64,000 nt of DNA from Theileria orientalis strain Shintoku (Eukaryota > Apicomplexa > Aconoidasida > Piroplasmida > Theileriidae). Below the pieces are notes generated by a model. The model was not told the origin of the DNA. It made no database searches and was given only the letters and a program-made list of their open reading frames with translations. Position numbers and translations under genes: made by a program. Each line of letters opens with the position of its first letter. Position 1 is the stretch's first letter. Shown here in pieces: positions 14,335 through 53,300 of this stretch. The stretch covers positions 1,922,001 to 1,986,000 of the forward strand of contig NC_025261.1 in NCBI RefSeq assembly GCF_000740895.1, read 5' to 3'.

Positions 14335-15539
14335 ATGTATATGCACAAAAAATAGAGAAAGTTAAGCAAAGTCCATACGGTACATATGTCCAGTTTCATA
14401 AAACACATTAAATAGCTCCCGATATAGTGGATATTCCATTAAAAAATAACTAAGCTGGTCTGGTCGATTTTAAAATGATATGGCAGTTAAAAAGAGTGGT
14501 AAACACGTTGGTTTAGGTAGCTGATGAATATATTTAGAAACTAGACGAGCCATGAAATTACAGCTTTATTTTATCAGTGAACACAATTGAGTCGACAACT
14601 CAGATGTGTAAATTGAGATAATTAAATGGACATGGATTTAGTATGGAATCTCAGGGTACGGGCCAGTAGAATCTCAGAGATGGGGTTAATTATCACGACA
14701 TTAAATCCAATAGTCTCCATAAAACCTTTAAAATCATTAAAACATTCACACAATACAGTTTATTAAATCTACAAACGAATATATTGATAATTTATGCTAA
14801 AATAGGTAGATAGGCAGGAGTAGTATAGAAAGTCGGTGTGTAAAACATAAATATGTACATAATCAATGAATAAAATTAATTTCAATTTAAAACAAATTAG
14901 ATACAGATCGTGTGTATGTGATTTATGTTTGAAAATGGAACAACTAGCATATATAATTAATAACTTGCAGATTCCATGAGACATCGGTGAATTTGCGACA
15001 TCGTCTACACATTTCGCTGATTCCCGGTTTAATTTAAGATTACTGGAAAAAGTAGCTATGAGTCATCATAGAAAGTCAATTGATCAAATAAATTAATATA
15101 ATTAGTGCCAAGATGAGTACAATTTTACATTCATAAAGTTTTTCCACTCAAGGTTGCAAAAATCTGAATGAGAGAAAATGTATTTAATATGGAAAAAAAC
15201 AATAAGTACCCGATGCGTGAGAGTCTGCGTGTTGGATTAACATAGGAATGACACTAAATGATCAAGCGTTAGACGTATTAATGAAACAAATTGTCTAGAT
15301 AACAGTGGACCACGAGTCAAATAACTCAACCCTAAACGAACAGTGTTTTAGCAAAATTTAAGCTAAATTTAACAACCCATTCGATGTTCAATAATATAAA
15401 TGTATGCGTAATATGTGTTTATTAATAAAATATAGTCAATAGCTAGTCAAAAAGTTTCTCTCGAAAATAGTTGACAATTGATTTGCAGCAAGAATTTAGT
15501 TTTAATTTATTAAATATTTAAATACCGGTAAATATTAAA
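14335..15539. other. Long intergenic spacer
   Basis: No further exon was recognised. TGGAATC at 14644-14650 and GATTCCA at 14970-14976 lie upstream of the secreted-protein gene at 15540. Confidence 0.5.
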
Positions 15540-18824: not shown

Positions 18825-21800
18825 ATGTTGTTTTGCACCAGGTTATTGTATTTCTTTTTGTATACCTCGTTAATATATCGCACTGATATTGTTCTCTCAG
18901 ATCCCACATCTACTATCTCTTCTGATCCCAGCGGAGCTTCCAGTATTGTTGATTCCAATGCCTCTCCTACACCCACTACTGTTTTAAATCCCTCCGCTCC
19001 AATTCCTGGAGCGGCACCTACCTCCGGCGTCCAACCCATGACGGCCTCTGCTCCCCCTATGGGTCAGATTGCGACCTCGCCAATTGTGGCATCTGCTGCT
19101 CCTGTGACTTCTGGAATGGTACCAGGCGCCTCCGCTGCAGGAGCTCCTGTAGCAGGCGCTCACCTCGGTGCCCAGGTCGGCTCTGTGGCAATGGGCGCTC
19201 CCTTGGCAGGGGCCGCTGCCGTTCCAGGTGGTCTTGTCCAGGGAGCTCCAGTGGCCGCCCCGGTAGCCCACGCCGGTGGCCAGGTTGGCCACGTGGCAAT
19301 GGGCGCTCCCCTTGCCGCTCCTATGGCTCACGGAACTCCAGTGGCCGGTGCTTCAATGGTCCACGCGGCCCCTGGAGCCCAGGTGGCTCCCGGAACCCAT
19401 GTTGCCCCTGGAACAATGACTGGCCCCCCTGTCGTCGCTGCCCATTTCGCCGACCAGAATCCAGCCTCGGCTGGAGCTCCCTTGACGGCCGGCCTCGGAG
19501 CGGCCTCAATTCCAGCTCCAGTGGTCACGCCCATTAACATTGCCGCTCCTGTAGCAGGAACTCATGTAGCAGGAACTCATGCAGCAGGAACTCACCTCGG
19601 CGCCCAGGTCGGCTCTGTGCCAATGGGCACTTCCTTTGTGCCAGGTACTCCAATGGCAGGCCTTGGAGCCGCGATGGCCCCTATGGCCGGCCCCCAGGCT
19701 GGCCACGTGGCAATGGGAGCTACCCTTGCCGCCCCTTTTACTGCTCCTATGGCTGGAACCTCTCTCGCGGCCCCTGGAGCCCAGGTGGCCCACGGAACCC
19801 AGGTGGCTCATGGGTCCCATGTTGCTCATGGAACCACAGCCGGCGCCCATGTCGTCGCTGCCCATTTCGGCGACCTTAATCCATCCTCGGCCAGTGTTTC
19901 CGTGCCCGCACCAGGTACACATGTTGCTGCCCATACTCCCCCGGTAACGGTTCCCTTGACCCCTGGACCCGGGGTCTCGGTGCCTATCCCTGCCGAAGGA
20001 GCACACGCCGGTCATCTGGCTGGCGCTCCTGTGGCAGGCGCTACTTTAGATGGCGCTTCTCTGTCCGCTCCTTTGACTGGAGCCCTCGCTGGCCCCGACC
20101 AGTCCTCTCCGCTGAACCTCACCAAAATCAGCCTCGACATTAACGAGAAGGTATCGACAGACACAATTAAATACAGGCGCGATGATCCTAATAAAACTGA
20201 CATCTGGTACGCCCTTGACGGTTACATAATTAACGAAATCCGCGTCGGCAATAACAAAAGGTGGCCCCCTGAAGGCGAGGTCAAGGAGTGTAAGAAGGTG
20301 ATGTTTATAATTGACGCCGAGGGCAAGAAGACGCTGAGGGTGATATATCCGGAAGAGGAGGACGCGTATGACCCGGATAACCCGCCTGTTAAGACGGGTG
20401 CTGACGGTTCAGCTGGTGCCGGTGTTAGCGCTGGGGGTACAGCTGGTGTTAGCGCCGAAGCCAGCGCAGGTTCTGGTGCTCCGGCAACTGTGCTGACTGC
20501 CCCAATGGCCGGTGCGCCTCATGTGGATCCAAATCAGGTTATTGGAATGGGTCAGGGAATGCCGACGTCGGTTACTATTCCTTTGGCGCCCGAGACCGAT
20601 ACAGGTGCGGAGAGCGGAACTGACTTAGAAGCTTTACTCTCCGCAACGGACCCATCTGAAATTCCCCAGCACCATAGCCCCCCTGCATACAAACAAGACC
20701 AACAAGGTCAGGTTTATCTGGAATTTTCTGTACCCGATGATAAATCTGGTCAATCCGGTACCACTGCTACTAGCGGATTTACAGTCGAAGAGATTCACGC
20801 TACTCCCAGACATGGAAGAACAATCGAATATCATGACTCCGATGACGAAACGTTTCCACGTGACCATTTCGATGAGTCTCCTCTGGATATTACCACCTAT
20901 GTCACTCGCGTTGGCCGTCGGGTCGGAGCACTCGAGGAGAGGATGGACGCAGCCGAAGGCACGATCAAGCTGTTGACGATGACGCTGGACTACCAGCACC
21001 AGATCCTGGACTTCAAGAGGGAATTCGGCGACAAAAAGGCGCCGTTTGGCGCCGACCTTGGTACCAGGGCTAAATTCGCGGGCGTTACGGGCGGTTTTCC
21101 CAGATTTGGCGCCGACGGGTTCAGGCCGGCCACTTCTCAGATGTCCAAGGAGCTCGCTGTCACCGAGCACCCCTCGGATGTTAAGTTGTTGGTGATAGAC
21201 CCTAATGATGCCACCAAATTCGTTGACCTCGACACCAACAAGTACAAGGTGAAACAAGAAGGCGACGAGATCCATTACTTGTTAGACCCGGGTGTCGAGT
21301 GCAAGTTGGTCACATATCAGGCCAAGAGCGTGTGGAGTCACCGCAATTCCGACCCTCACCCTATTGGCGTTGTTTTTTACCCTGATGACGACAAGGTCGT
21401 GGTCGACTTTGTGGACGCGATCGTCATGTACGTGAAGAAGGGTGTTATGAGTAAGGAGGGCCTTGGTGCGGGCGAACGTGCCCAGGCAGGGCGAAAAGCA
21501 GTCGTCGACATTTCCCTGAAGGAGCTTGACTCAGACGGCGAGGATATCACTGAGCTTGTCAGCGCCCAGGATGTTGCCGACGGCGTGGGATCAGGTACGT
21601 TTGCAGTGGGCGCCCCCGTTGCCAGGGCATCAGCAAAGCGTGCCCTAGCCAGCGATTCCAGTGCCCCGTTAGCAGGTGCTCCAGTTGTTGCTAACGGTGT
21701 TTCATCGGGCGTTGTGGCTGAGGGCGTCGTGCCCAGTGAACCTGTCCCCAGTGAGGGCGCCCATTTAGCCGGTGCATCGGTTGTGGCTGATGCAGCTCCG

Positions 21801-22349
21801 TTAGCCAGTGCCTCTGTTCCAGCTGAGGCCGCCCAGGTAGCCAGTACTCCATTTGCCGGTGCTCCAGTTGTAGTCAATGAGGTAGCCCATGTAGCCGGTA
21901 CACCCGTTGCCGGTGCCCCGTTATCAGGTGCTCCCCTTGCAGGTGCACCGGTAGTAGTCAATGACATAACCCAGGTAGCTAGCGCCCATGTTGCCAGTGC
22001 CCCTGTTCCAGCTGAGGGCGCCCAGGTAGCTGGTACACCAGTTGCCGGCGCCCCGTTAGCAGGTGCTCCCGTCGCCGGTGCTCCCGTGGCCGGTGCCCCT
22101 GTTGTACCGGGTGCGAGTGTTGCAGCTCCTGCAGGACAGCCAGCGGCTGAAACAGCTCTTCCTACATCTGTACCTGCAGCACCAGCACAACAGGCTTCCG
22201 CAGCTCCTATCGCCCAAGCTCAACCTGCTGCTCAAACTGCAGCTGTACCAAATCACTCTGCCTCGCCAGTTCCTGCCGGACTGCCAAGCTCTCAATCCGC
22301 TCCTGTATCATCGTCTGAAGACCAATCCGAAGGTGCTCCTACTGTTTAA
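18825..22349 (+). CDS. Secreted FAINT-domain protein with Ala/Pro/Gly repeats
   Basis: Single exon, 1174 aa. A hydrophobic N-terminus (LLYFFLYTSLIYRTDIVLS) serves as signal peptide. Residues about 60-420 consist of degenerate short repeats such as PVAGAHLGAQVGSVAMGAP. Residues about 425-500 hold a FAINT domain with its signature LTKISLDINEKVSTDTIKY and DIWYALDGYIINEIRVG. A second FAINT-like domain lies at about 785-870 (DVKLLVIDPNDATKFVDL, SVWSHRNSDPHPIGVVFYP). The C-terminal part returns to APVAGAPLAGAP repeats and ends in a Pro/Ala/Gln-rich tail. The repeat region is very GC-rich, in sharp contrast to its AT-rich flanks. There is no membrane helix or GPI tail, so it is probably released. 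A collagen- or mucin-like extended structure is likely. Function unknown. Confidence 0.8.
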   Translation: MLFCTRLLYFFLYTSLIYRTDIVLSDPTSTISSDPSGASSIVDSNASPTPTTVLNPSAPIPGAAPTSGVQPMTASAPPMGQIATSPIVASAAPVTSGMVPGASAAGAPVAGAHLGAQVGSVAMGAPLAGAAAVPGGLVQGAPVAAPVAHAGGQVGHVAMGAPLAAPMAHGTPVAGASMVHAAPGAQVAPGTHVAPGTMTGPPVVAAHFADQNPASAGAPLTAGLGAASIPAPVVTPINIAAPVAGTHVAGTHAAGTHLGAQVGSVPMGTSFVPGTPMAGLGAAMAPMAGPQAGHVAMGATLAAPFTAPMAGTSLAAPGAQVAHGTQVAHGSHVAHGTTAGAHVVAAHFGDLNPSSASVSVPAPGTHVAAHTPPVTVPLTPGPGVSVPIPAEGAHAGHLAGAPVAGATLDGASLSAPLTGALAGPDQSSPLNLTKISLDINEKVSTDTIKYRRDDPNKTDIWYALDGYIINEIRVGNNKRWPPEGEVKECKKVMFIIDAEGKKTLRVIYPEEEDAYDPDNPPVKTGADGSAGAGVSAGGTAGVSAEASAGSGAPATVLTAPMAGAPHVDPNQVIGMGQGMPTSVTIPLAPETDTGAESGTDLEALLSATDPSEIPQHHSPPAYKQDQQGQVYLEFSVPDDKSGQSGTTATSGFTVEEIHATPRHGRTIEYHDSDDETFPRDHFDESPLDITTYVTRVGRRVGALEERMDAAEGTIKLLTMTLDYQHQILDFKREFGDKKAPFGADLGTRAKFAGVTGGFPRFGADGFRPATSQMSKELAVTEHPSDVKLLVIDPNDATKFVDLDTNKYKVKQEGDEIHYLLDPGVECKLVTYQAKSVWSHRNSDPHPIGVVFYPDDDKVVVDFVDAIVMYVKKGVMSKEGLGAGERAQAGRKAVVDISLKELDSDGEDITELVSAQDVADGVGSGTFAVGAPVARASAKRALASDSSAPLAGAPVVANGVSSGVVAEGVVPSEPVPSEGAHLAGASVVADAAPLASASVPAEAAQVASTPFAGAPVVVNEVAHVAGTPVAGAPLSGAPLAGAPVVVNDITQVASAHVASAPVPAEGAQVAGTPVAGAPLAGAPVAGAPVAGAPVVPGASVAAPAGQPAAETALPTSVPAAPAQQASAAPIAQAQPAAQTAAVPNHSASPVPAGLPSSQSAPVSSSEDQSEGAPTV

Positions 22350-39319: not shown

Positions 39320-40864
39320 CTAAACCTTTTTTAGGGTCACTGCAAATAGGCCAGAGCCATGGTATGCTGTTCCCAAAGGCACATCCTTGGTCTCCCTAAC
39401 AAACAGGAACACGTGGAAGACTGAGATGACTGATATTACAAAGAGCAGTATGTGGACGAACGTCTGATAAACGGGCAGTACGTACTCAATGAAGAAGAGC
39501 ACGATCCTGGCGCACGTCCAGCTTACGAACACGCAGAATGCAAAACCTGTGTTCCTCATCTGCGTGGGGAACACCTCTGCCAGGTACACAAATGTGAGGC
39601 CGCCGAGCCCTACTGCGTATCCTACCGTGAACCCGAAGTAGCCGACAACGGTGAGGGCGTGGGCCCACTTTGCGTTGTTTCCGAGGCGCCTCATGAAGAG
39701 CGCGAAGAACATGAACAGGGTGCTAATAACGGTGCCTGCCAGCATCAGGGTCCTGCGGCCGACCTTCCGGATAATGAAAGCAACTCCGAGTGTGGCCGCG
39801 AAGTTGACGAGAACTAGGCAGAATAAGAGGAAGGTGGTTCCGTAGGAGCGCCCCATGGCGTCGGCGAACACACTGGGTGCAGTCTCACTGAAGAAGGCGG
39901 GACCCACCACCTGGTGGCCACAGGCGAGGATGAATACTATGCAGATCGGCTTCAGGTACCCGGTCGTGTACATGGCCTCGAATAGGAAAATGTTGGGATG
40001 CTCCTTGGCTACCTCGGCGTCGCGCTCAAACTCCTCCAGCATCTCGTGTGCAAGGTCTGCGTTGTGCATGCCCTCGTTGCTCAGGGTGCCCGCGTGGACC
40101 ACCTGCTCTGCAGCATCAGGCTTCTCTCCGCTCTCAGGGTCTGCCTCGAGGCCACCGTACAGCTTCTTGATCAGCGCCATGGCCTCCTCGGTCATGCCGC
40201 GCTCTACCAGCTCGTAGGGGGTCCTGCTGCTGACAGCGAACAGGACAGCGAATGAGAGGAGTGCGAAAATGCCTGGCATCAGCTGCGCTCCGCGCCATAT
40301 TACCTTGTCCCTCATGTATACACGGTAGGTCTTGTCAACGAGAATGCGTCCGTGGATGAGCTGCCATAACCCCGTCACCAGGAATCCTGTGGACACGAAG
40401 AAGGGGAATATGAAGGTGAACCAGCTCCTCCACCTCGGGTGTGCCACTTCTATCAAGAAGAGCAGGGCCACTGCGCTGAAGCCGAACGCGAAGCCCATTA
40501 GCATGCGTCCTACGAAGAGCATTGCGAAGTGCACCGTGCATGCGGTAATGACTGAGGCGACTATGAACGCTGCGTTCGAGATCATCATTGCGGTCCTCCT
40601 CGACATCTTGTGCGAGAATGTGAGTGCTACGGAGCCTACGCCGGCGCCGATAAAGGTGCCGATGCCCATTAGGCGGAAGAATCCCACTGAGAGTCTGCAC
40701 GAGTGAATGTGCTCTTCGCGTGAGCACCAGCCGAGGTCGGCCACGATGAATTCGCGTGTGGTTTCCAGCGCGTTAATTCCCGTTCCATATGCGAGCGCCA
40801 TAAGAGCGGCTGCAGTGGCTGAAATGACCAAAAGGGGACTAACTTTACGCGATTTATGACCCAT
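39320..40864 (-). CDS. Sugar-porter-like MFS transporter
   Basis: Single exon, 514 aa, with about 12 hydrophobic helices, for example ISATAAALMALAYGTGINAL, MLFVGRMLMGFAFGFSAVA and AHALTVVGYFGFTVGYAVG. The first loop after helix 1 reads LETTREFIVADLGWC, close in layout to the Plasmodium hexose transporter loop (NTIKNFIV.EF.WC). The central cytosolic loop (nt about 40040-40190) and the RRTLMLAG motif after helix 8 (a degenerate form of the GRR motif) fit the sugar-porter family of the major facilitator superfamily. The C-terminus has RETKDVPLG, a variant of the family's PETKG. It is probably the parasite's plasma-membrane hexose importer or a relative. The substrate is inferred. GATTCCA lies 371 bp upstream (41235). 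Confidence 0.82.
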   Translation of the reverse strand: MGHKSRKVSPLLVISATAAALMALAYGTGINALETTREFIVADLGWCSREEHIHSCRLSVGFFRLMGIGTFIGAGVGSVALTFSHKMSRRTAMMISNAAFIVASVITACTVHFAMLFVGRMLMGFAFGFSAVALLFLIEVAHPRWRSWFTFIFPFFVSTGFLVTGLWQLIHGRILVDKTYRVYMRDKVIWRGAQLMPGIFALLSFAVLFAVSSRTPYELVERGMTEEAMALIKKLYGGLEADPESGEKPDAAEQVVHAGTLSNEGMHNADLAHEMLEEFERDAEVAKEHPNIFLFEAMYTTGYLKPICIVFILACGHQVVGPAFFSETAPSVFADAMGRSYGTTFLLFCLVLVNFAATLGVAFIIRKVGRRTLMLAGTVISTLFMFFALFMRRLGNNAKWAHALTVVGYFGFTVGYAVGLGGLTFVYLAEVFPTQMRNTGFAFCVFVSWTCARIVLFFIEYVLPVYQTFVHILLFVISVISVFHVFLFVRETKDVPLGTAYHGSGLFAVTLKKV

Positions 40865-42096
40865 ACTTTAAAAATTATATGATTGGGCAAGTGCTATTTC
40901 AAATATCAGAGCAGTGTCTACTAATGTTAGAAAGGCGTAAAACGTGTACCAGCCTACTTGTGATTCGTTGGTTGTTAATTGATGTTTACAATCAACTGAT
41001 TCAAATCGATGTAATTTAAATCGACAGTCTTTTAAACCAATTGAGAAAATGATATTTCCAAATTTAATCAATTTTCCAGGGCCAAAGCGATTAATGAGAC
41101 TAAAGACGGTCTAAAAGCAACCTAAAGATACAGTATGACGCAGTTTTACCTCTATTTTAGAGAAACGCCAATAAACGGTACTATTATCCAAGATGAAAAA
41201 CAAAGAACAAGTATCAACTGAGATCTGGTCCTGTGATTCCACAATCCTCAGATGGGTGGGGCTGGAAGGCTGATGTGTTAATCGTTTCAATTACTGTTCA
41301 CGCTTAACTTCCAATCATACCTTTGTAGGTCAGGTGAAACGTAAAATTTAAATTTGCACATTCTTGCCTTTATTATTTTCCACATTTGCCCTTTATTAAT
41401 CTCAATTCCCACCTTAAATCAATTTTCCCATGATACTAACCAATATCATCATTTACTTTTCAATTCTTCAACATTTTTGATCAAAAATTGTTACGGATCT
41501 TTAAAAACTATGAATTAATATTTTTATATAGAATCTTGACCTACTTATTTACTATTGAGTCAAGTTTGTCCAACTCACCATTTTCTTTCTTATTCCACTC
41601 CATTTTCCTCTGAATCTTTCTAGATTTTATCTTAAAATAAATATACAACATCCTGTTTTCTGTTTATATGATGTGTGTAGCATATTAAAATAATACTACT
41701 CACCTAACACACATGGACACACAATCAGTAAAACGCGCAATAATTAACTAAATCCATACATGATCGTGCAAATATTAGTATATAGAGTGTAATGGAATAT
41801 AATGTAATTAGAAGAATACTTTTAAAAGCCATTCAAAGTATGTAAGTAGTCTAAATGGTTAACAACGCCTAAGCCAATAGGGCTAAAGGTTAGGAGACTA
41901 CGTTCAAGTACGTCCAGTACAAAGAGTTCCGGATAACAAAAGGGTACCAAGGTCAGAAACTGAAGGGTACCTCATTATAAATCGAGAGTATAGAGGGATC
42001 AAAAAACAGAGGGCGAATGAGGACGTACGAAGTAGCACCTGTGACCTTATTGAGGAGTATGTAGACGAAAATACCCAATTGTAGGTATAGGGAAGT
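40865..42096. other. Long intergenic region with a possible small exon
   Basis: Mostly AT-rich. GATTCCA at 41235-41241. On the minus strand 41651-41541 is a 36-aa frame (FKIKSRKIQRKMEWNKKENG) containing a GTGAGT donor, with another donor-like GTGAGT at about 41704. It could be part of a small spliced gene, but I could not complete a model. Confidence 0.4.
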
Positions 42097-42871
42097 TTAT
42101 TTGCGGACTGTGGCTGCGACGGCAACTGCCACAACCAAGACGCAGCCGGAGGTGACCATGACTGCAATGGCGCCGACTGGCATTGATGAGTCCCTCTTGA
42201 CCTTCTTAACGCCAGCCTTGGTCTTCGTTTCCTTCTTCTCCTTCTTCTCGTCAGCCTTAATTGGAACGGATCCATCGTCCTCTCTGCGCTTGGCAGGAGC
42301 TTCGGCACCTAAAAAAGAATATAAGTTCAGGCAAAGTAAAAAGAAAGGAACAACTTAATAAACAAAAATAGTTAAGGAACTGAAGATGTCGTCGTAGGTA
42401 GCAATTATATAAGTCTATATGTTTAAAGAGAGTTATACCTCTGAGTTCGTTTCCACCCTGGTAGGTGTGCCAGCCGTCGGGGAAGCTGCCGATATTGCGG
42501 TCGAATATGTCCTCTTCCTCCTTCTTTGGCTTTGCTGGGACTACTCTAGCAGGTGTAGTTGTTCTGCCAGATGGAGCCTTTGGCGTTGCTGAAGCAGCTG
42601 GAATTACTCGAGCAGCTGGGATCACTTTACTTGAATCTCTGCTGTCGCTGATGTTAATATCAAAGTCGTCATCGGAGGGGTCAGCTTCGATCTTCTTTTC
42701 AATCTCAAAATCAGGCAGGGCTGATTCGTAGATGGTGGAGATGCCAGCATCAATGCCGGCATAGGAGTTTGAATTATTGGGTGTGCCAGCAGCTCCGGCA
42801 TCGTCGGAACGGACGAATTTGTGGCTCAGGGCAACCAAAATCAAGCCTTTCAAAAGAATAGGTGCGTTCAT
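42097..42871 (-). CDS. Secreted single-pass membrane protein (candidate surface antigen)
   Basis: Exons, minus strand: 42871-42439 and 42308-42097 (130-nt intron) give 214 aa. There is a signal peptide (MNAPILLKGLILVALSHKF, cleavage likely near VRSDD), then an acidic and Pro/Ala-rich ectodomain (residues 25-185; DPSDDDFDINISDSRDSSK, VIPAARVIPAASATPKAP), then a Lys/Glu-rich block and a membrane helix four residues from the end (GAIAVMVTSGCVLVVAVAVAA then TVRK). Signal peptide, low-complexity ectodomain and short-tailed anchor are the layout of Theileria surface antigens such as PIM/TaSP, but I cannot claim orthology from sequence alone. GATTCCA lies 96 bp upstream of the start. No enzymatic motif. 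Confidence 0.75.
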
Positions 42872-43114
42872 TGCTCAATAAGGTTTGTAAGTCTGGAGGA
42901 TGGAAAGTGGTGGGTCCAAGAGTAAAGTACGGAGTTATGCATGGGGTCGACCGCGAGTGAATGCTGGATTCCACTGGATCCCATCGTAACCGGCCCCAAT
43001 TAGCTCCCTTAAACGGCCTGAATGAGCATATTTCAGGCCGTATACGATGATATAGGCCCCAATTGCCCCGCTCGTTGGCCTTTTGGCGCTCTCCTCGCCC
43101 ACATGTGGTCTAAT
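42872..43114. promoter_or_regulatory. Upstream region of the surface-antigen-like gene
   Basis: GATTCCA at 42967-42973, 96 bp upstream of the start at 42871. The rest is unremarkable. Confidence 0.45.
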
Positions 43115-44171: not shown

Positions 44172-45991
44172 TTACAGGTCATAGACCCGGGTGAGCAGCT
44201 TTGCGACGGCTGCCTCAGTGTGTTTGTCCTCGAGGATGAACTTTGCGTGCCGCTTTACGAAGTCTGGCGCGTCGCCGACTGCGAACGAGTTGTTGAGCGC
44301 GTCCATGATCTCGATGTCGTTTTCGCCGTCGCCCACGAAGAAGAGTCCGTCGCTGTCTAGTCCGTAGTGTTCCATGAGTTTTTTGACTCCGAATGACTTA
44401 CTCACTTTGGGCGGCGTGATCTCCGTGAAGAGCTGGAAGATTGTGACCTTGGAGATGTGGTCCACTCCGTTTACGAAAGGCCCGAAGTTAGGCTCATTTT
44501 TGTAGAAGTAGATCATCACAGGGTCCACTTCCAGCAGATGCTGCGGCTCTATTTGCATCGGCTTGAAGAAGTTATAGAACAGGAAGAGCTTCGCCGTGAT
44601 CATTGCTGGGTCAGAGAGGCAGTAGTAGTTTTCCAGGTCGTAGAACAAAAACTCGCCTTCTGCTCCCTTCTCCTGAATGTATGCGAGCAGCTTCTTCATG
44701 TACTCCTTCGAGAAGGTCGTCTTGTGAATTACGTTTCCTCTGTGGTCGAACACCACTGTTCCGTTGTTGTAGACTCCCGGGTACCCGTTGTACGTCGTGT
44801 GCTCCATGATCAGGTCATTGAAGCCGTCGAAACTCGATCCAAATGACCTTCCTAAATAATTGTTAGTCCAATGTTTATTTCGTATCAGTGTTGTATTTTA
44901 TCTTCTTATCGTCCTTAATCGCACTACTCTCATACTACTAGGTTACCTGTACAAATGAGCGGGTGATACCCTGCCTGCCTCGCCTTCTCAAACGCCTTCA
45001 AATTCTTAACAAAGTACTTTGAGTTCATGCACAAGAACGTTCCGTCCAGGTCAATTGCAAAGTACTTAGGCTTTACGCTGGGCATGAACTTTTCCATGTT
45101 TGACGGGATCGTCGACTTTCCCTTTTCCGTCGTCAGCTTCGGCAGTATTGAATACAGTTTGTCCAGCTTATCGAAAAAGTCTTTTCTTGTGATTCGAATC
45201 CACTTGTTTCCGCTTCTGTACATCTTAATCCTCAGGAATCCCACGTCTTCCGAGCCGTCGATGTAGCATGATGGGCATGCTATTTTGTTTGTGGTTGCCA
45301 CTCCTGTGTCGGCAGCGTTTGCATACACGGCCGTGCTACCTTCTGAAGTGTTACCTTCGCTTGTGGTGGTGCTAGTGGTGTATGTTTTCGTCAATCCGTG
45401 CCCTAAAATGTAATTTTTTACTCACGCGTTGTATATAACCCTATCTAACATCTATGTTAACGGGAACCAGTATATATTTAATGGGTGCAATGCTATTATA
45501 AATATCATCTGATACATAAGAGAATCATAAATGGCAATATCGGCGGATACTTAGTGATATAATAGCACCAATAATGCCAATATCTGCTGCATATTGCCGT
45601 ATTGCTATGTACACCTAATATACTCGTGCTTACCATCGGTGGGCTTCGACCCCTTGGTGTCAGGCAGGGTGTACCCTGAGAAGCTCGTCGACGTAGTGCT
45701 GTCGCTACCGAAGCTCACGTCGCGCTTCGTGCCAGTCTGCCCTGTGAAAGTGCCGACAATGGTGCTGGGTTCACTGGTGACTATGTAGTCGATCATCTGG
45801 GCCCTCTCATTGTCTGAGAAGATCCAAACGTACTTGGCGTACGTTGACGTGCTCGATTGCCAAATGAAGTAATCTCCGTCCTTGATTGATGTGATTTTGT
45901 TTGTGTCGTAGCTGAAGAATATATCCAACGGCACGTTAGCCCAAAAATGGCTCGAGTGCGCGAGGTTTTTTGATGCGATGTCGAGCTCCAT
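44172..45991 (-). CDS. FAINT-domain / HAD (Cof-type) phosphatase fusion
   Basis: Exons, minus strand: 45991-45634, 45402-44947 and 44851-44172 give 497 aa, with all junctions in phase. The N-terminus (residues 2-75) is a textbook FAINT domain: ELDIASKNLAHSSHFWANV, ITSIKDGDYFIWQSS, AKYVWIFSDNERAQM. A Thr/Ser-rich linker follows, then a partial FAINT-like stretch (VGFLRIKMYRSGNKWIRIT). Residues about 240-497 are a HAD class IIB (Cof) phosphatase: motif I DLDGTFLCMN, motif II across the last junction ICTGRSF, the motif III lysine near FGVKKLMEHYG, motif IV VGDGENDIEIM. The catalytic Asp pair is intact. Cof enzymes hydrolyse small phosphorylated metabolites such as sugar phosphates. No signal peptide was found before the FAINT domain. 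The frame stays open upstream, so a 5' exon is likely missing. Confidence 0.85.
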
Positions 45992-47267: not shown

Positions 47268-48431
47268 CTACTCTGAAGCGCTGTGGCCGTTCACGTGGTT
47301 GGCTTGGCCATTCATCTCAATTTCCATTTCGTCCTCAGTGCTACTCTCCTCCGTGGTTTCGTCCTCAGTACTAAAGTCTAAATCCATATCGACCCCGCCC
47401 TGAACAATTTAGTCAGATAACTAGTAAGGGTGTGTCAAAAACAGCCACTCAGCGCCTTTGCCACAAGTGCTTTTATGCCCTTATCCCTACTGCCTAAGAG
47501 GGCGAGGGACTTCGCACACTTACACTGGCAGTCAAGTTGAGAGTTACGACTGCACATAGACCGTCAACTAGTGGCTAAGTGAAGGCGGCTGCTACATATG
47601 TAGTCCATTCCTGTCTATCTGCCCTAAAAGTACCTGTTGATTCTGGCCAGGAACGACCCCCTGGTGCAGCTGCTGACTGTACTGGGAGTGTGTCTGCGAG
47701 TAGGAAATGTATCCCACAGGGTCCGTGTAGGTGAGAGAAACTCGGTCGAGCTGCCAAATGCCCTCCCTGACGACGAACCTCTGCGTCGTGTCCCTGCCCC
47801 AACGGTCAATAATGCGCAAATAAACGTAGAACTTGGCCTCCTCTGTAAAGTTGTCTAAAACATTCAGAAATTAAAAAAGGATGCGACGGTCGCGTCACCG
47901 GCAACTAGTCTGCTTGAAGCCCGCAGAGGCTTTACTAAATAAGTTTAAACGCTTCGGAGTACTTCTATCTATCTATCTGCGTCTAGCATAACTGGTGGAG
48001 GCAGAGCCTGCTTCCTGCGTAAACTTACGTGGAAAGCCCATCATTAAATTGTTACTCAGGGGCACCCTGGTGTTGTTGTACACGACAATCTTCTCGCAGT
48101 AGTCCGAGTTGTACTCGTAAAGCTTGTTGGCGCCCTGGTAAATCCCGTAGAAAAACGAATTGCCGTTTGGGATAATTATGTGGTAGTAGATGTCGTAGAA
48201 CTTGTGCAGCTCGACGATCAGCTCGTCCCTGTTGAACTCGTCCTGCAAGTTGACCAGGATCGGGTCTAGGCAGTGCGCGAACCTAATGCTGGGCCCCCTG
48301 CCCAAACTTCCACCTTTCAAAAAGCTGTAAAAAACCCTGCCGCTCCTTTTCCCAGTCCCACTGATACCACTTTCAATGATTTTCGTAAGCACGAAGTGGG
48401 TGAGACACAGAAATGTTACCGTTTTCCTCAT
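47268..48431 (-). CDS. Signal-peptide protein of unknown family (three exons)
   Basis: Exons, minus strand: 48431-48029, 47854-47634 and 47399-47268 give 251 aa, with all GT-AG junctions in phase. The start is the ATG of MRKTVTFLCLTHFVLTKIIE, a possible signal peptide. The upstream frame has no ATG. The body reads as a folded globular domain: NRDELIVELHKFYDIYYHII, SFFYGIYQGANKLYEYNSD, then across the exon 1-2 junction GFPHNFTEEAKFYVYLRI, then RDTTQRFVVREGIWQLDRVS. The C-terminal exon is an acidic tail (DLDFSTEDETTEESSTEDE). I do not recognise the family. The N-terminus could alternatively be the first strand of a cytosolic protein. TGGAATC/GATTCCA lies 141 bp upstream (48572). Confidence 0.65.
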
Positions 48432-49394: not shown

Positions 49395-51730
49395 TTAAAT
49401 CTTTTGGTACAACTGATGGTTAAACTTAACTATTATGATGGTCATATTGTCGCATCCAATTCCCTCTGACTCACTCGGGTTGTTGCTCAGGCACATGTCG
49501 CAGAGTTCTTCGCATATTTTTTCGAGGACTTTTCTTTCCTTCGCTCCGTCGCCCTCCATTCTTATGTTCGAGCCTGCTCCTCCTCCTCCCTTTTCAAACG
49601 AGTTACTCGATGATGCTAAGTCGAACACGCTTTCTCCGTAACTGCTGTTGGCTCCGGCTGTCTTTTCGCCACTCTTTGTCTTTGCCTTTACTTTCTTTCC
49701 CTCCTTCGCGTCCTCCCACTCTCCCTCTGTGTATAGCGTGTACTTGTAGTTAACGTAGTCTACCACCTGCTGGTTTGACTTGCAGTCCCATATTCCGTCG
49801 CATGCGAGTATGAGGAACTCGTCCTCCTTCGTCAGGGGCAGTATCTTAACGTCTGGGAATGATATGATTTTCTGTTCTCTGGTTGAGAGGCTGTTGTCCA
49901 GTTTGAATGAAAGGTCTCCCAGGCTGCGCGACAGGTTCAGGTTTCCGTCCACTCTTCCGTTGATCACGTAACCTCCTGCGTTTTTGATCCTGTTGAGCTC
50001 CGGCTCGTCTGTCGGCTTGTGGTCCACTGAGAGTGGCACTGCTACTTTGTTCCTGCTCAGGACGCATCTCGAGTCTCCTGCGTTTGCCACTATTAGACAT
50101 GGCACTGGGTCCTCCAACACAACTGCCACTACGCTCGTCGAGCCGCATCCCATTGCGTACAGCTCCGAGTTTAGTGCGTCTTCTGCTGTGTTTTCCGTTT
50201 CTAGCGCGTCAACTTCCATATTTGGCTGTGCGTTTTCCGTATTAGCTCTCAACGCTTGAAGGCCTGTATAATAGTTAATCGTTGTGAACAATTGATCATT
50301 ATTCGCTGGTTATAATTCAACTAAATGTAGTGATATCTATATACCGTTACGGGTTGTGGCATACATTAGTATTATCTAGTGTCAGTAGTACTAGCTAGTT
50401 TTATAACTACAAATACATGTTAGCTAACAAGACTAGAATTGGTAGTATCATGTAAGGATATGCGCGGTATTAGTATCAGGAGATGAAATAACGATTCGTA
50501 TTAGAATCGGATTAGTACATAACGAGTAAAGGTAACGAATAGACAAGAGCTACCTAGTACTTGAAATCTAATTAATTGATATCTAGTATCCATCTATCTA
50601 TCTAACATTATCAATAACGATTCTGACTAGTGTAGTTGGTTGTATGGTAAGAGGCTGCTTATTGTTATCATTAAAACCCTACCATCATCATCGGAAGGTG
50701 CGTTTGGAACTGCGTCTAGTCCCAGTTCCGTGTTTATCTCTTCCATCTCCCTATCTGACCCCTCAGCCTCAGTCGAAGAGTCCACTCCGTAGTAGGGTAT
50801 GCTGTCATACTTGTTAAGCTTCTCGGTGGTCTTCGCCACTCCCTGGGTCGTGCTCTGTGTTGCTTCCGCGCTATTAGAGTGGCTCGTTAGGTGGCCAACA
50901 CCAGCAGTGTTACTGGATGAGGCGTTACCAGACGCGCCTGAATACGATATGTTGTAACTGCTTGTCAACTGCTGAATTATGTCTATGGCGTGCTGGCGAT
51001 TCGTTATCTTTTCTGGCAACAGCACCTTGAACAGGTTATCTCCGCTCGACTTTTTGTTTGTGCTTATGAGGTGCAGCTGCTTATCCACCTCCGGCTTCTG
51101 CAGGTACTCGTCCAACTTCAGGAAGCTGTTCTCCAGCGCCCTGCCTATCAGGTGTGACTCGGGCGTTGTGGTGCTAAAGGTCGGCGTGTTCGTTCCTGAG
51201 GGGTTGACCGGCGTTTCCGCCGTGGTGTTGGTGGGCGTGGCTGTGTCCGTTGGCGTTGTTTCTGCTGCTTCGGTGGGGTTATCACTGTACTTAGCGACGT
51301 CTGAGCCGAGGCCCTGCGCCGTGGCTATCAAACTTTCCAGCTCGTTAGTGAAAATATACGAGAAGTTCTCTGAGACCCACCGACTCACGCAGTTCCCTCC
51401 GTGCCCGTCGAACACCCCGTATATGCTCCCCTTCAATTTGCCTGCGCTGCAGTCGCCGCCTTCGCTCTCGCCTGCTGCTGACAGCTGCTCGACGAAACTG
51501 TTTGCTCCCGACTTTCCGGAACTGACTTCTCCAGAGGCGGTGTTCGTCGGCCCTGGGGTCAAGTTCCCCGTTGTCTTAAATAGAAAATTCGGAAGAGTCA
51601 GATGTGCGTCTTCCATTGATATCCTCCAGCCCTGCATGGAGCTAGATCCGAAGATGGTGGGATCGAGCTTGAAATCTCCACCGTTTGAGGAGACCTTTTC
51701 GGTCCTAGGACTACTTAAGTGAGCTCCCAT
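49395..51730 (-). CDS. PP2C-type protein phosphatase (PPM) with predicted N-myristoylation site
   Basis: PP2C enzymes are Mg/Mn-dependent Ser/Thr phosphatases. Exons, minus strand: 51730-50683 and 50263-49395 (419-nt intron) give 638 aa. The start was set at MGAHLSSPRTEK, a myristoylation context shared with other apicomplexan PP2Cs, rather than an in-frame ATG 36 nt upstream. Motifs in order: SMQGWRISMEDAHLTL, YGVFDGHGGNCVSRWV (metal-binding Asp), YAMGCGSTSVVAVVL, VANAGDSRCVLSR, NLNLSRSLGDLSFK, EFLILACDGIWDC and, near the end, GCDNMTIIIV. All metal-coordinating aspartates appear present. A poorly conserved insert of about 250 residues (nt about 50690-51340), Thr/Pro/Ser-rich, splits the domain, and a shorter Gly/Lys insert precedes the last motif. 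It probably acts at the membrane. Confidence 0.92.
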
Positions 51731-53300
51731 TTGCAAACCTCTAATAAACAGATAGCGTAGGCGCATACAAGCAAGTCTTCAAGAGTACGCGCATCTAATA
51801 CCAATGTTTAAGTTACGATTTTCTTATTCAGCGAGTAGCACGATTTCAAATTTATCTCTTCAGTAAATACTAGACAATTCACAAATATATATATTTTAAC
51901 GGTTGTGTACGCAGGGAAGCCAAACTGCTTACGATGTCAAATTCACAGTACCTTTTCTAGAAACTCCTCGTTTATATTATCGATGCTTGTTTACACTAAT
52001 GGTAACTTGTTTTAAAACGAAACTGAAAATAAATAACAAATAGACTCAAATTATCAAAAAAAATAAATCTGGAACCAACTGCTTTTTAAAATTTAATAAA
52101 TCACAGTAAATGGTCTGAATTAACCTAGACAAGATTTTTTTCTTTATAACGGATACAATCGGTTAATAGGCGAAAATACCTGAAACCAGGGCGAAAAAGG
52201 TTAATTGGGGAACAAATTCACGAGTTTTCCGGTGATTCTATTAAAATATGTTCAACATTACATTTAAATCACGATCCAAGTTTGGAATCCAGTCACTGTA
52301 AGGATGTAACTACAAATGATCCTTATTAACGTGACAAAATCTACAAATCTACGATAAATTGTGGCAGCCCTTTCAAAATACCAGCAACGAAATAAAAATA
52401 CAATAATATCTAAGATAAATGAAAAATTTTTAATACAATTTTATAAAAATATCTAGGGTAAATCAAATAAAAGGAATTTTAAATGTTTGGCAATGGGGTA
52501 CCATGATGGAATCACTAACCATTCGATTAGTAACGTTTAATAGTGGAATTTATTTCATAATTTTCTAATGCCACTGTAATTATCAGCTTGAATACACTAA
52601 AGGTGCTGCGTTTGACTTATACTTGGCCGGTTATATCCTTGGGTTTTCATCTATACATTTTGAGTGTGGCTCAATAGGCCTCTGGTTTAATTACCCCCTT
52701 GAGTTACACACAAAACACTCATATTTATGAAAATTTTTATTAAAAGATCAATACACTTCAAAAATATTTATAGTTAATTCGAATTAGCACAGAAACAAAC
52801 ACCAGCCTGTTTATAAATAAGAAACATTTCTATGTATCAATATCAATATTATTAGTTAGTTGGTTATTTAAATAGTTACTTAGCGTATAAGTTAGAAAAA
52901 TAGCACATAGGCTAGTATGTTATCAAGTGCATAGTTCAGTTGAGTTCATGGTCTGTGTTCCATAAATATTTATGATAATTTATAATCATTGCCATTTTAT
53001 ACACTCAATTGATCTGTTAAACCAATTCGTGTCCTTTTTAAAAAATTTATCTCAAATTCGTGAAAGTTAGAAATGGAATCCACCCTGGGGGGTGTGCGAC
53101 TTTTTTTGGTGCTTGTCATAAAATTAAATAATTAATTTATAAAATATTTATTAAAATTGTATCATAGATTTATTAAGTTTTGATTTAAATGGTAGAAAAA
53201 ATTATTAATTGGTAGTCAAAGTGACAACAAATATTAAATAGAGTAAGGCCCCTAAAATACACAAACTGAGCAGATTTTAATACACAGAAGTGTTATAAAA
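51731..53300. promoter_or_regulatory. Long divergent intergenic region, PP2C (-) and PIG-F (+)
   Basis: 1.57 kb, AT-rich, no exon recognised. TGGAATC occurs at 52283-52289, 52507-52513 and 53074-53080. A G-tract (CCCTGGGGGGTG) follows the last copy. It is presumably the promoters of both genes. Confidence 0.5.

What the first reader, a model, noticed from the sequence alone, without database searches (positions are those of the whole stretch)
44172..45991. FAINT domain fused to an intact HAD (Cof-type) phosphatase
The first exon is a clean FAINT domain (ELDIASKN..., DGDYFIWQ, YVWIFSDNE). Later exons encode a complete HAD class IIB enzyme with DLDGTF, ICTGR and GDGENDIEIM. All three exons join in phase, so this is one gene. 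FAINT domains are known as Theileria-expanded secreted or host-directed modules of unknown function. Coupling one to a small-molecule phosphatase suggests a secreted metabolic effector or a FAINT module that positions an enzyme. The spliced junction falls exactly in HAD motif II.
Basis: partly seen in the sequence, partly recalled or inferred. Interest (0 to 1): 0.75.

Follow-up and report, generated by a model that had tools for sequence, protein, structure and literature searches.

The report
FAINT domain fused to sugar phosphatase
A cattle parasite gene joins a mysterious Theileria-specific FAINT domain to an intact-looking phosphatase; the fusion is conserved in a second Theileria species but, unlike most sampled FAINT genes, it shows no secretion signal, so it is probably an enzyme kept inside the parasite and could help reveal what FAINT does.

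Summary
The fusion is real. The window is Theileria orientalis Shintoku DNA. One three-exon minus-strand gene (45991-44172, 497 aa) encodes an N-terminal FAINT domain and a complete HAD class IIB phosphatase. A T. orientalis protein from another assembly (MACJ_001711) and a T. parva protein have the same architecture; a T. annulata protein, annotated only as a fragment, falls in the same 100%-supported clade. Intron 2 splits HAD motif II at one place in 7 of 7 own paralogues examined. FAINT membership is sub-threshold in Pfam (16 vs 20.7 bits) but firm with a profile from this genome's FAINT segments (35 bits; best of 43 controls 3.4). The domain probably continues into exon 2 (suggestive). 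'Secreted effector' is not supported: no signal peptide is visible, whereas 18 of 20 sampled FAINT ORFs and 16 of 32 related HADs show one, and the nearest solved relatives are Plasmodium phosphatases described as cytoplasmic. Most likely this is a parasite-internal phosphometabolite phosphatase with FAINT as a binding or regulatory module. A missed upstream exon is not excluded. Two of 20 sampled FAINT ORFs also carry an alpha/beta-hydrolase, so FAINT-hydrolase fusion may recur. The paper searches showed no discussion of the HAD fusion.

The parts
45634..45991 (-). exon 1: start codon 45991; main part of the FAINT domain (about residues 1-77), then Ser/Thr-rich tail
   Evidence: coordinates and phase; FAINT 16 bits (below cut-off); species-specific FAINT profile 35.0 bits; 87% identity to P0003, 31% over 80 columns to T. 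parva P0004
45403..45633 (-). intron 1, GT..AG, phase 1, 231 nt; lies in the Ser/Thr-rich stretch
   Evidence: the same junction is implied by annotated P0003
44947..45402 (-). exon 2: rest of the Ser/Thr-rich stretch, a W-x-x-I plus helix segment (possible C-terminal part of FAINT), start of HAD with motif I
45146..45232 (-). possible C-terminal segment of the FAINT domain (W + helix motif), inside exon 2
   Evidence: aligns to FAINT profile positions 94-130 in register, but E 1.4; 23 of 1000 shuffles scored at least as high (959 of 1001 rows got a score); suggestive only
45038..45052 (-). HAD motif I, D-L-D-G-T (nucleophile and acid/base aspartates)
   Evidence: columns D239, D241, T243 nearly invariant (90% or more) over 36 rows, some partial
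44852..44946 (-). intron 2, GT..AG, phase 1, 95 nt, splits the Gly codon of HAD motif II (ICTG/R)
   Evidence: donor at the same codon in 7 of 7 own paralogue exon pairs
44172..44851 (-). exon 3: end of motif II, cap, motif III Lys (44397-44399), motif IV GDGEND (44316-44333), stop
   Evidence: Hydrolase_3 99.4 bits; motif positions; 90% identity to P0003, 56% over 223 columns to P0004

Best explanation
A conserved gene of the Theileria lineage that holds T. orientalis, T. parva and T. annulata. It makes a parasite-internal (probably cytoplasmic) HAD class IIB small-molecule phosphatase of the Plasmodium HAD1/HAD2 type, in which a FAINT domain occupies the N-terminus; in half of the related piroplasm HADs examined (16 of 32) that place holds an SP-like start. 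Shown by sequence: the fusion, its presence in two species, complete catalytic motifs, no visible signal peptide. Inferred: the enzyme removes phosphate from sugar phosphates or similar metabolites by the usual aspartyl-phosphate mechanism; the FAINT domain binds a partner or ligand and so places or regulates the enzyme inside the parasite.
For: Fusion annotated in two further genomes (P0003, P0004). Clade with 100/100 support holding both T. orientalis rows, T. parva P0004 and T. annulata TA15565. D239, D241, T243, T273, K425, G447, N451 and D452 nearly invariant over 36 rows, some partial. Modelled with pLDDT of 90 or more at 218 residues (high blocks all from residue 221 on, the HAD part); closest to 2B30 (PvHAD2) and 4QJB (PfHAD1) by sequence and by fold. 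HAD-SF-IIB above its curated cut-off (52.7 vs 41.8). Exon 3 is 56% identical to T. parva P0004 but 25-34% to its long-matching own paralogues. No SP-like start in P0003 or P0004 against 18 of 20 FAINT ORFs with one. HAD1 called a cytoplasmic sugar phosphatase and HAD2 apparently cytoplasmic, both influencing central carbon metabolism (PMC6234871, passages). A FAINT protein that stays in the parasite is reported: TA11945 was detected within the schizont only (PMC11237503, passage).
Against: No activity or localisation data. The SP score is crude (it also misses P0014 and two window ORFs with real-looking signals), and an unseen upstream exon cannot be excluded without transcripts. 16 of 32 related HADs show no SP-like start either, so its absence is not special to the fusion on the HAD side. 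One of the 20 FAINT ORFs that is not cut by its locus end (L048) also lacks an SP-like start. TA15565 is annotated with only 186 aa, without FAINT and motifs I/II, so in T. annulata the gene may be decayed or wrongly modelled. The FAINT part was modelled at very low confidence (pLDDT 25-45). Motif I of T. parva reads DLDRT, not DLDGT.
Confidence: 0.55

Rival explanations
1. Secreted or host-directed phosphatase: an unannotated upstream exon supplies a signal peptide, so the protein leaves the parasite like most FAINT proteins and like the HAD paralogues with signal peptides.
For: Most FAINT proteins have a signal peptide (PMC2826314, passage; 18 of 20). 8 of 10 HADs of T. orientalis, T. parva and T. 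annulata other than the FAINT-HADs and TA15565 show an SP-like start. T. parva cluster HADs appear as Tp14, Tp17, Tp21-Tp23 in a table that I recall as one of known antigens (PMC7654785, passage). The frame is open for 48 nt upstream of the ATG and holds AG dinucleotides. One upstream ORF, 409 bp away, has a weak SP-like start and a GT[AG] donor.
Against: SP-like upstream ORFs with a donor are no more than about chance: 2 (any GT; shuffle mean 1.59), 1 (GT[AG]; 1.17), 0 (stricter; 0.32). The FAINT profile match begins at residue 1 in T. parva and the two annotated starts align. 18 of 20 FAINT ORFs carry the SP-like start in the same ORF as FAINT.
Confidence: 0.2
2. FAINT is a passenger: an accidental exon capture that is tolerated, contributing folding or stability but no function.
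For: FAINT is less conserved (31% over 80 columns) than HAD (56% over 223) between T. orientalis and T. parva. A large Ser/Thr-rich stretch sits in the T. orientalis protein and is mostly absent in T. parva. TA15565 lacks FAINT as annotated.
Against: The FAINT part is present on both sides of the T. orientalis / T. parva split and still scores above the Pfam cut-off in T. parva.
Confidence: 0.2
3. Gene-model artefact: two separate neighbouring genes joined by prediction.
For: No transcript data were available here; the Shintoku strain's own annotated protein did not appear in the three protein searches.
Against: Colinear fusion annotated in T. parva and in another T. orientalis assembly. Exon 2 carries linker, W-helix segment and HAD motif I in one frame. 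Phases and GC contrast fit. Intron 2 shared by paralogues.
Confidence: 0.03

Closest known systems
PvHAD2 (PDB 2B30) and PfHAD1 (PDB 4QJB/4ZEV), Plasmodium HAD-IIB phosphatases
   Same: HAD class IIB fold, all four motifs, best sequence and fold matches
   Different: The solved chains are about 300 aa and match only the HAD part (residues 228-499 of P0003); 23-27% identity in the fold match
Theileria HAD cluster genes (T. parva TpMuguga_01g01074, 01077, 01078, 01081, 01082 = Tp14, Tp17, Tp21, Tp22, Tp23; T. orientalis C1:2399981-2409601)
   Same: Same HAD-IIB family; own cluster shares the intron in motif II
   Different: About 300 aa where annotated singly, no FAINT, many with an SP-like start; on another contig; 25-34% identity to exon 3 in the long matches. 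That the T. parva and T. orientalis clusters correspond is my inference from family and chromosome number
FAINT / DUF529 proteins (SVSP, TashAT families)
   Same: FAINT domain
   Different: Mostly with a signal peptide; 18 of 20 sampled ORFs show no other Pfam family; here no visible signal peptide and a catalytic domain follows
FAINT + Hydrolase_4 ORFs in the same genome (L050, L054)
   Same: FAINT N-terminal to a hydrolase
   Different: Several FAINT-like units by eye, an SP-like start, alpha/beta-hydrolase instead of HAD; seen only as single ORFs

Membership tests
FAINT (Pfam PF04385) | score above curated cut-off 20.7 | tested here: not met
   exon 1: 16 bits, E 0.013; FAINT not listed for P0003 at E<=1; the T. 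parva orthologue passes with 21.5 bits
FAINT (Pfam PF04385) | homology to FAINT domains of the same genome | tested here: met
   profile of 118 own-genome segments (some from overlapping loci, none from this gene): exon 1 35.0 bits E 7e-10, P0004 33.3, P0003 32.3; best of 43 control proteins 3.4 bits
FAINT (Pfam PF04385) | C-terminal W + helix unit seen in extended FAINT domains | tested here: inconclusive
   exon 2 residues 57-85 in register, E 1.4; 23 of 1000 shuffles at least as high; BLASTP P0003 169-209 to L025, E 0.069
HAD superfamily, Hydrolase_3 / HAD-IIB | PF08282 and TIGR01484 above cut-off | tested here: met
   P0003 134.3 vs 20.9 and 52.7 vs 41.8; exons 2 and 3 also pass PF08282 apart
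HAD superfamily, Hydrolase_3 / HAD-IIB | four catalytic motifs: two Asp and Thr (I), Thr (II), Lys (III), GDxxND (IV) | tested here: met
   present in the window. That these are the defining motifs is established knowledge, recalled
Cof-type HAD-IIB (TIGR00099) | score above curated cut-off 137 | tested here: not met
   118.1 (P0003) and 108 (P0004): best-scoring NCBIfam model but below cut-off
Secreted Theileria FAINT effector (SVSP/TashAT type) | N-terminal signal peptide | tested here: not met
   with a home-made score only: 0.39 for P0003, none for P0004, 0.42 for the window ORF, against 2.0 or more in 18 of 20 FAINT ORFs; an upstream exon is not excluded
Sugar phosphatase of HAD1/HAD2 type | phosphatase activity on sugar phosphates | not testable with these tools
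   needs enzyme assay

The most novel reading that the evidence does not exclude
FAINT is a general accessory (ligand- or partner-binding) module that Theileria attaches to hydrolases: with SP-bearing alpha/beta-hydrolases (two ORFs in T. orientalis) and, in this gene, inside the parasite with a metabolic phosphatase. The FAINT-HAD would then be a FAINT protein of known chemistry that works outside the secretory route, a direct handle on what the domain binds.
Probability: 0.25. Interest if true: 0.7.

Novelty: new variant of a known kind. Interest (0 to 1): 0.5.

Why it matters
FAINT domains occur in more than a hundred proteins per Theileria genome (for example 142 in T. orientalis Shintoku, PMC9323827 passage) and their function is unknown. 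A conserved fusion to an enzyme with a well-understood reaction, apparently kept inside the parasite, gives an assayable protein in which the effect of FAINT on activity, partners and location can be measured. It would also be an exception to the rule of thumb that FAINT means secreted.

Tried and rejected
Rejected: that the fusion is a prediction artefact (two further annotations, phases, family intron). Rejected: that the neighbouring same-strand FAINT gene (about 48431-47268) is the recognisable source of exon 1; its FAINT shows no measurable similarity to exon 1. Rejected: that exon 1 alone holds a clean FAINT.

Led nowhere: fold of the FAINT part (pLDDT 25-45), so no fold is claimed for it; a PDB sequence search with one FAINT + Hydrolase_4 ORF gave nothing at E<=0.001. 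Paper searches. Nothing in their listings or in the passages opened discusses the FAINT-HAD fusion; only aimed at the alpha/beta-hydrolase fusion, and it listed 10 of 150 papers, 25 of 4,222. One search (Theileria + FAINT domain + phosphatase + hydrolase) found 0 papers. None of the 4 papers holds DUF529 together with haloacid dehalogenase; PMC2826314 holds FAINT and haloacid dehalogenase, in separate passages on separate families. The library lacks most subscription journals, and supplementary tables were not open to me.

Not done: transcripts; the T. annulata genomic locus; dN/dS; a wider census of FAINT ORFs. In one search, 37 rows were used. P0030, P0044, P0038 and P0023 were dropped by my motif filter; P0005, P0006, P0027, P0031, P0035-P0037, P0039-P0041 and P0045 were not put in; row 'Tequi10' is P0010 from an unnamed assembly, not T. 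equi. In one search one of 20 segments (L042) was dropped as too short. In one search one of four controls (P0002) got no score; the number printed for it means nothing.

Full report
What and where. The window is G000:C2:1922001-1986000 of a 9.01 Mb, 6-contig assembly. Its contig C1 is 2,746,313 bases long, the same length as the contig that carries P0029, named Theileria orientalis strain Shintoku, so the genome is taken to be that strain. The gene lies on the minus strand: exon 1 45991-45634, exon 2 45402-44947, exon 3 44851-44172, introns GT..AG of 231 and 95 nt, phases 1 and 1, 1494 nt with stop, 497 aa; exon GC 0.48-0.52, intron GC 0.32-0.33.

Is it one gene? Two further annotated proteins have the same architecture. 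T. orientalis MACJ_001711 (P0003, 499 aa, on a contig of another length than any here) matches exons 1, 2 and 3 with 87, 81 and 90% identity over their whole coded length. A T. parva Muguga protein (P0004, 423 aa) matches them with 31% over 80, 41% over 85 and 56% over 223 columns and has Pfam FAINT (21.5 bits, cut-off 20.7) followed by Hydrolase_3 (125.7 bits). The donor of intron 2 splits the same codon of motif II in 7 of 7 own paralogue exon pairs examined; six read G/GT and one A/GT; the acceptors were only read by eye. Two genes or a prediction artefact is therefore very unlikely. The Shintoku strain's own annotated protein did not appear in the three protein searches; why is unknown.

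The FAINT part. Pfam gives exon 1 only 16 bits (E 0.013), below cut-off, and does not list FAINT for P0003 at E<=1. A profile from 19 own-genome FAINT segments gave exon 1 17.0 bits and P0004 35.8 bits, best control 4.0; profile-profile alignment of the P0004/P0003 N-terminus to it gave P 1.1e-5 and probability 81.9. An iterated profile of 118 own-genome segments, none from this gene, gives exon 1 35.0 bits (E 7e-10 for 1000 sequences), P0004 33.3 and P0003 32.3; the best of 43 control proteins scores 3.4. So it is a FAINT domain, though divergent. Many extended FAINT segments in this genome go on to a W and a helix-like stretch (by eye). Exon 2 has such a segment (45232-45146) in register, with weak statistics: E 1.4, 23 of 1000 shuffles score at least as high for exon 2, 48 for P0003 and 74 for P0004, against 321, 364 and 678 for three controls (a fourth got no score). 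The AlphaFold model also places strands and a helix there, but with very low confidence. My reading is that FAINT is interrupted in T. orientalis by a Ser/Thr-rich insert that contains intron 1 and is mostly absent in T. parva; this is suggestive, not shown.

The HAD part. P0003 passes PF08282 (134.3 bits) and TIGR01484 HAD-IIB (52.7 vs 41.8) but not TIGR00099 Cof (118.1 vs 137). D239, D241, T243, T273, K425, G447, N451 and D452 are nearly invariant over 36 aligned rows, some of them partial. The nearest solved structures are P. vivax 2B30 (113.5 bits) and PfHAD1 4QJB (81.2 bits), also the top fold matches. Two FAINT-less piroplasm HADs tested, P0029 and P0007, are also nearest to 2B30 (80.7 and 89 bits). 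PMC6234871 (passages read) identifies 2B30 as PvHAD2, calls HAD1 a cytoplasmic sugar phosphatase and HAD2 apparently cytoplasmic, and says that both influence central carbon metabolism.

Family history. The genome holds a HAD cluster at C1:2399981-2409601 and one further copy at C1:1962732-1963618. In the tree (37 rows) the two T. orientalis FAINT-HADs, T. parva P0004 and T. annulata TA15565 form a clade with 100/100 support on a long stem; none of the 14 T. equi rows falls inside it. The fusion is thus at least as old as the split of T. orientalis from T. parva/T. annulata. TA15565 is annotated with 186 aa only, lacking FAINT and motifs I/II; its locus could not be read. PMC10598219 (Table 2 passages) lists TA15565 at 40.3 RPKM in attenuated and 92.4 in virulent transformed cells (log2FC -1.2, p 0.00083) without signal peptide or TM domain; since the model looks truncated, the last point is weak. 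T. parva chromosome 1 HADs appear as Tp14, Tp17, Tp21, Tp22 and Tp23 in a table of PMC7654785 (passage) that I recall as one of known antigens. PMC2826314 (passages) reports above-average dN/dS for a haloacid dehalogenase-like family and says that the majority of FAINT proteins have a signal peptide.

Secreted or not? With a simple hydrophobicity score and a threshold of 2.0, P0003 (0.39) and P0004 (none) have no SP-like start. Among the 32 other piroplasm HADs returned (P0001, P0002, P0005-P0034) 16 have one, and among the 10 of T. orientalis, T. parva and T. annulata other than the FAINT-HADs and TA15565, 8. Of 20 sampled own-genome FAINT ORFs, 18 have an SP-like Met in the first 60 residues, against 19 of 360 internal stretches; the FAINT-HAD ORF scores 0.42. 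Of the two exceptions one (L046) is cut by the locus end and one (L048) is not. The score is crude: it also misses P0014 (1.51) and the window ORFs at 15522 (1.66) and 18825 (1.86), which look like real signals by eye. Upstream of the ATG, 1,277 nt hold two SP-like ORFs with any GT donor (shuffle mean 1.59), one with GT[AG] (1.17) and none with a stricter donor (0.32), that is, about what chance gives. So a signal peptide is not visible, but a missed upstream exon is not excluded. A FAINT protein that stays in the parasite has been reported: TA11945, detected within the schizont only (PMC11237503, passage).

Is FAINT-enzyme fusion unique? No. Of the same 20 FAINT ORFs, 2 (L050, L054) also carry Pfam Hydrolase_4 above cut-off (40.8 and 30.4 vs 27), with an SP-like start and a G-Y-S-L-G motif; the other 18 show FAINT only at E<=0.001. 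The sample is small: the genome search scored 150 FAINT matches, itself a lower bound. The pattern suggests FAINT as an accessory module for hydrolases, which is the boldest reading kept here.

Verdict. It is a new variant of a known kind: two known domain families in an architecture that the paper searches (listings and some passages) did not show discussed.

Noticed in passing
L050:2171-4363 (+) and L054:1958-3955 (-), own genome contig C1: Two related ORFs with several FAINT-like units followed by a Hydrolase_4 (alpha/beta-hydrolase) domain with GYSLG, and an SP-like start: a second kind of FAINT-enzyme fusion.
   Followed up: partly
window about 47268-48431 (-): The same-strand upstream neighbour looks like a multi-exon gene (by eye) with an SP-like start and a FAINT domain (22.2 bits); its FAINT is not close to that of the FAINT-HAD.
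   Followed up: partly
own genome C1:2399981-2409601: Tandem cluster of HAD-IIB genes sharing the motif II intron; probably the counterpart of the T. parva chromosome 1 HADs listed as Tp14, Tp17, Tp21, Tp22, Tp23.
   Followed up: partly
P0005 and P0006 (T. orientalis MACK_000885, MACJ_000862): Annotated proteins with two HAD domains in tandem, possibly merged neighbouring cluster genes.
   Followed up: no
own genome C2:1998891-1999259 (-): Hydrolase_3 match (31.7 bits) inside a 1274-aa open frame about 33 kb from the FAINT-HAD; region fetched (L022) but not identified.
   Followed up: no
window 39320-40867 (-) and 49395-51778 (-): Flanking ORFs: an MFS sugar transporter (Sugar_tr 176 bits) and a PP2C protein phosphatase in two ORFs.
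   Followed up: no
window 18825-22349 (+): Secreted-looking 1174-aa FAINT protein made largely of Ala/Pro/Gly-rich repeats by eye.
   Followed up: no
window 42257-42874 (-): Small ORF with SP-like start (2.59) just downstream, no Pfam family.
   Followed up: no
T. annulata TA15565 (P0001): Lower transcript level in attenuated than in virulent transformed cells in one published RNA-seq comparison (PMC10598219); gene model looks truncated.
   Followed up: partly
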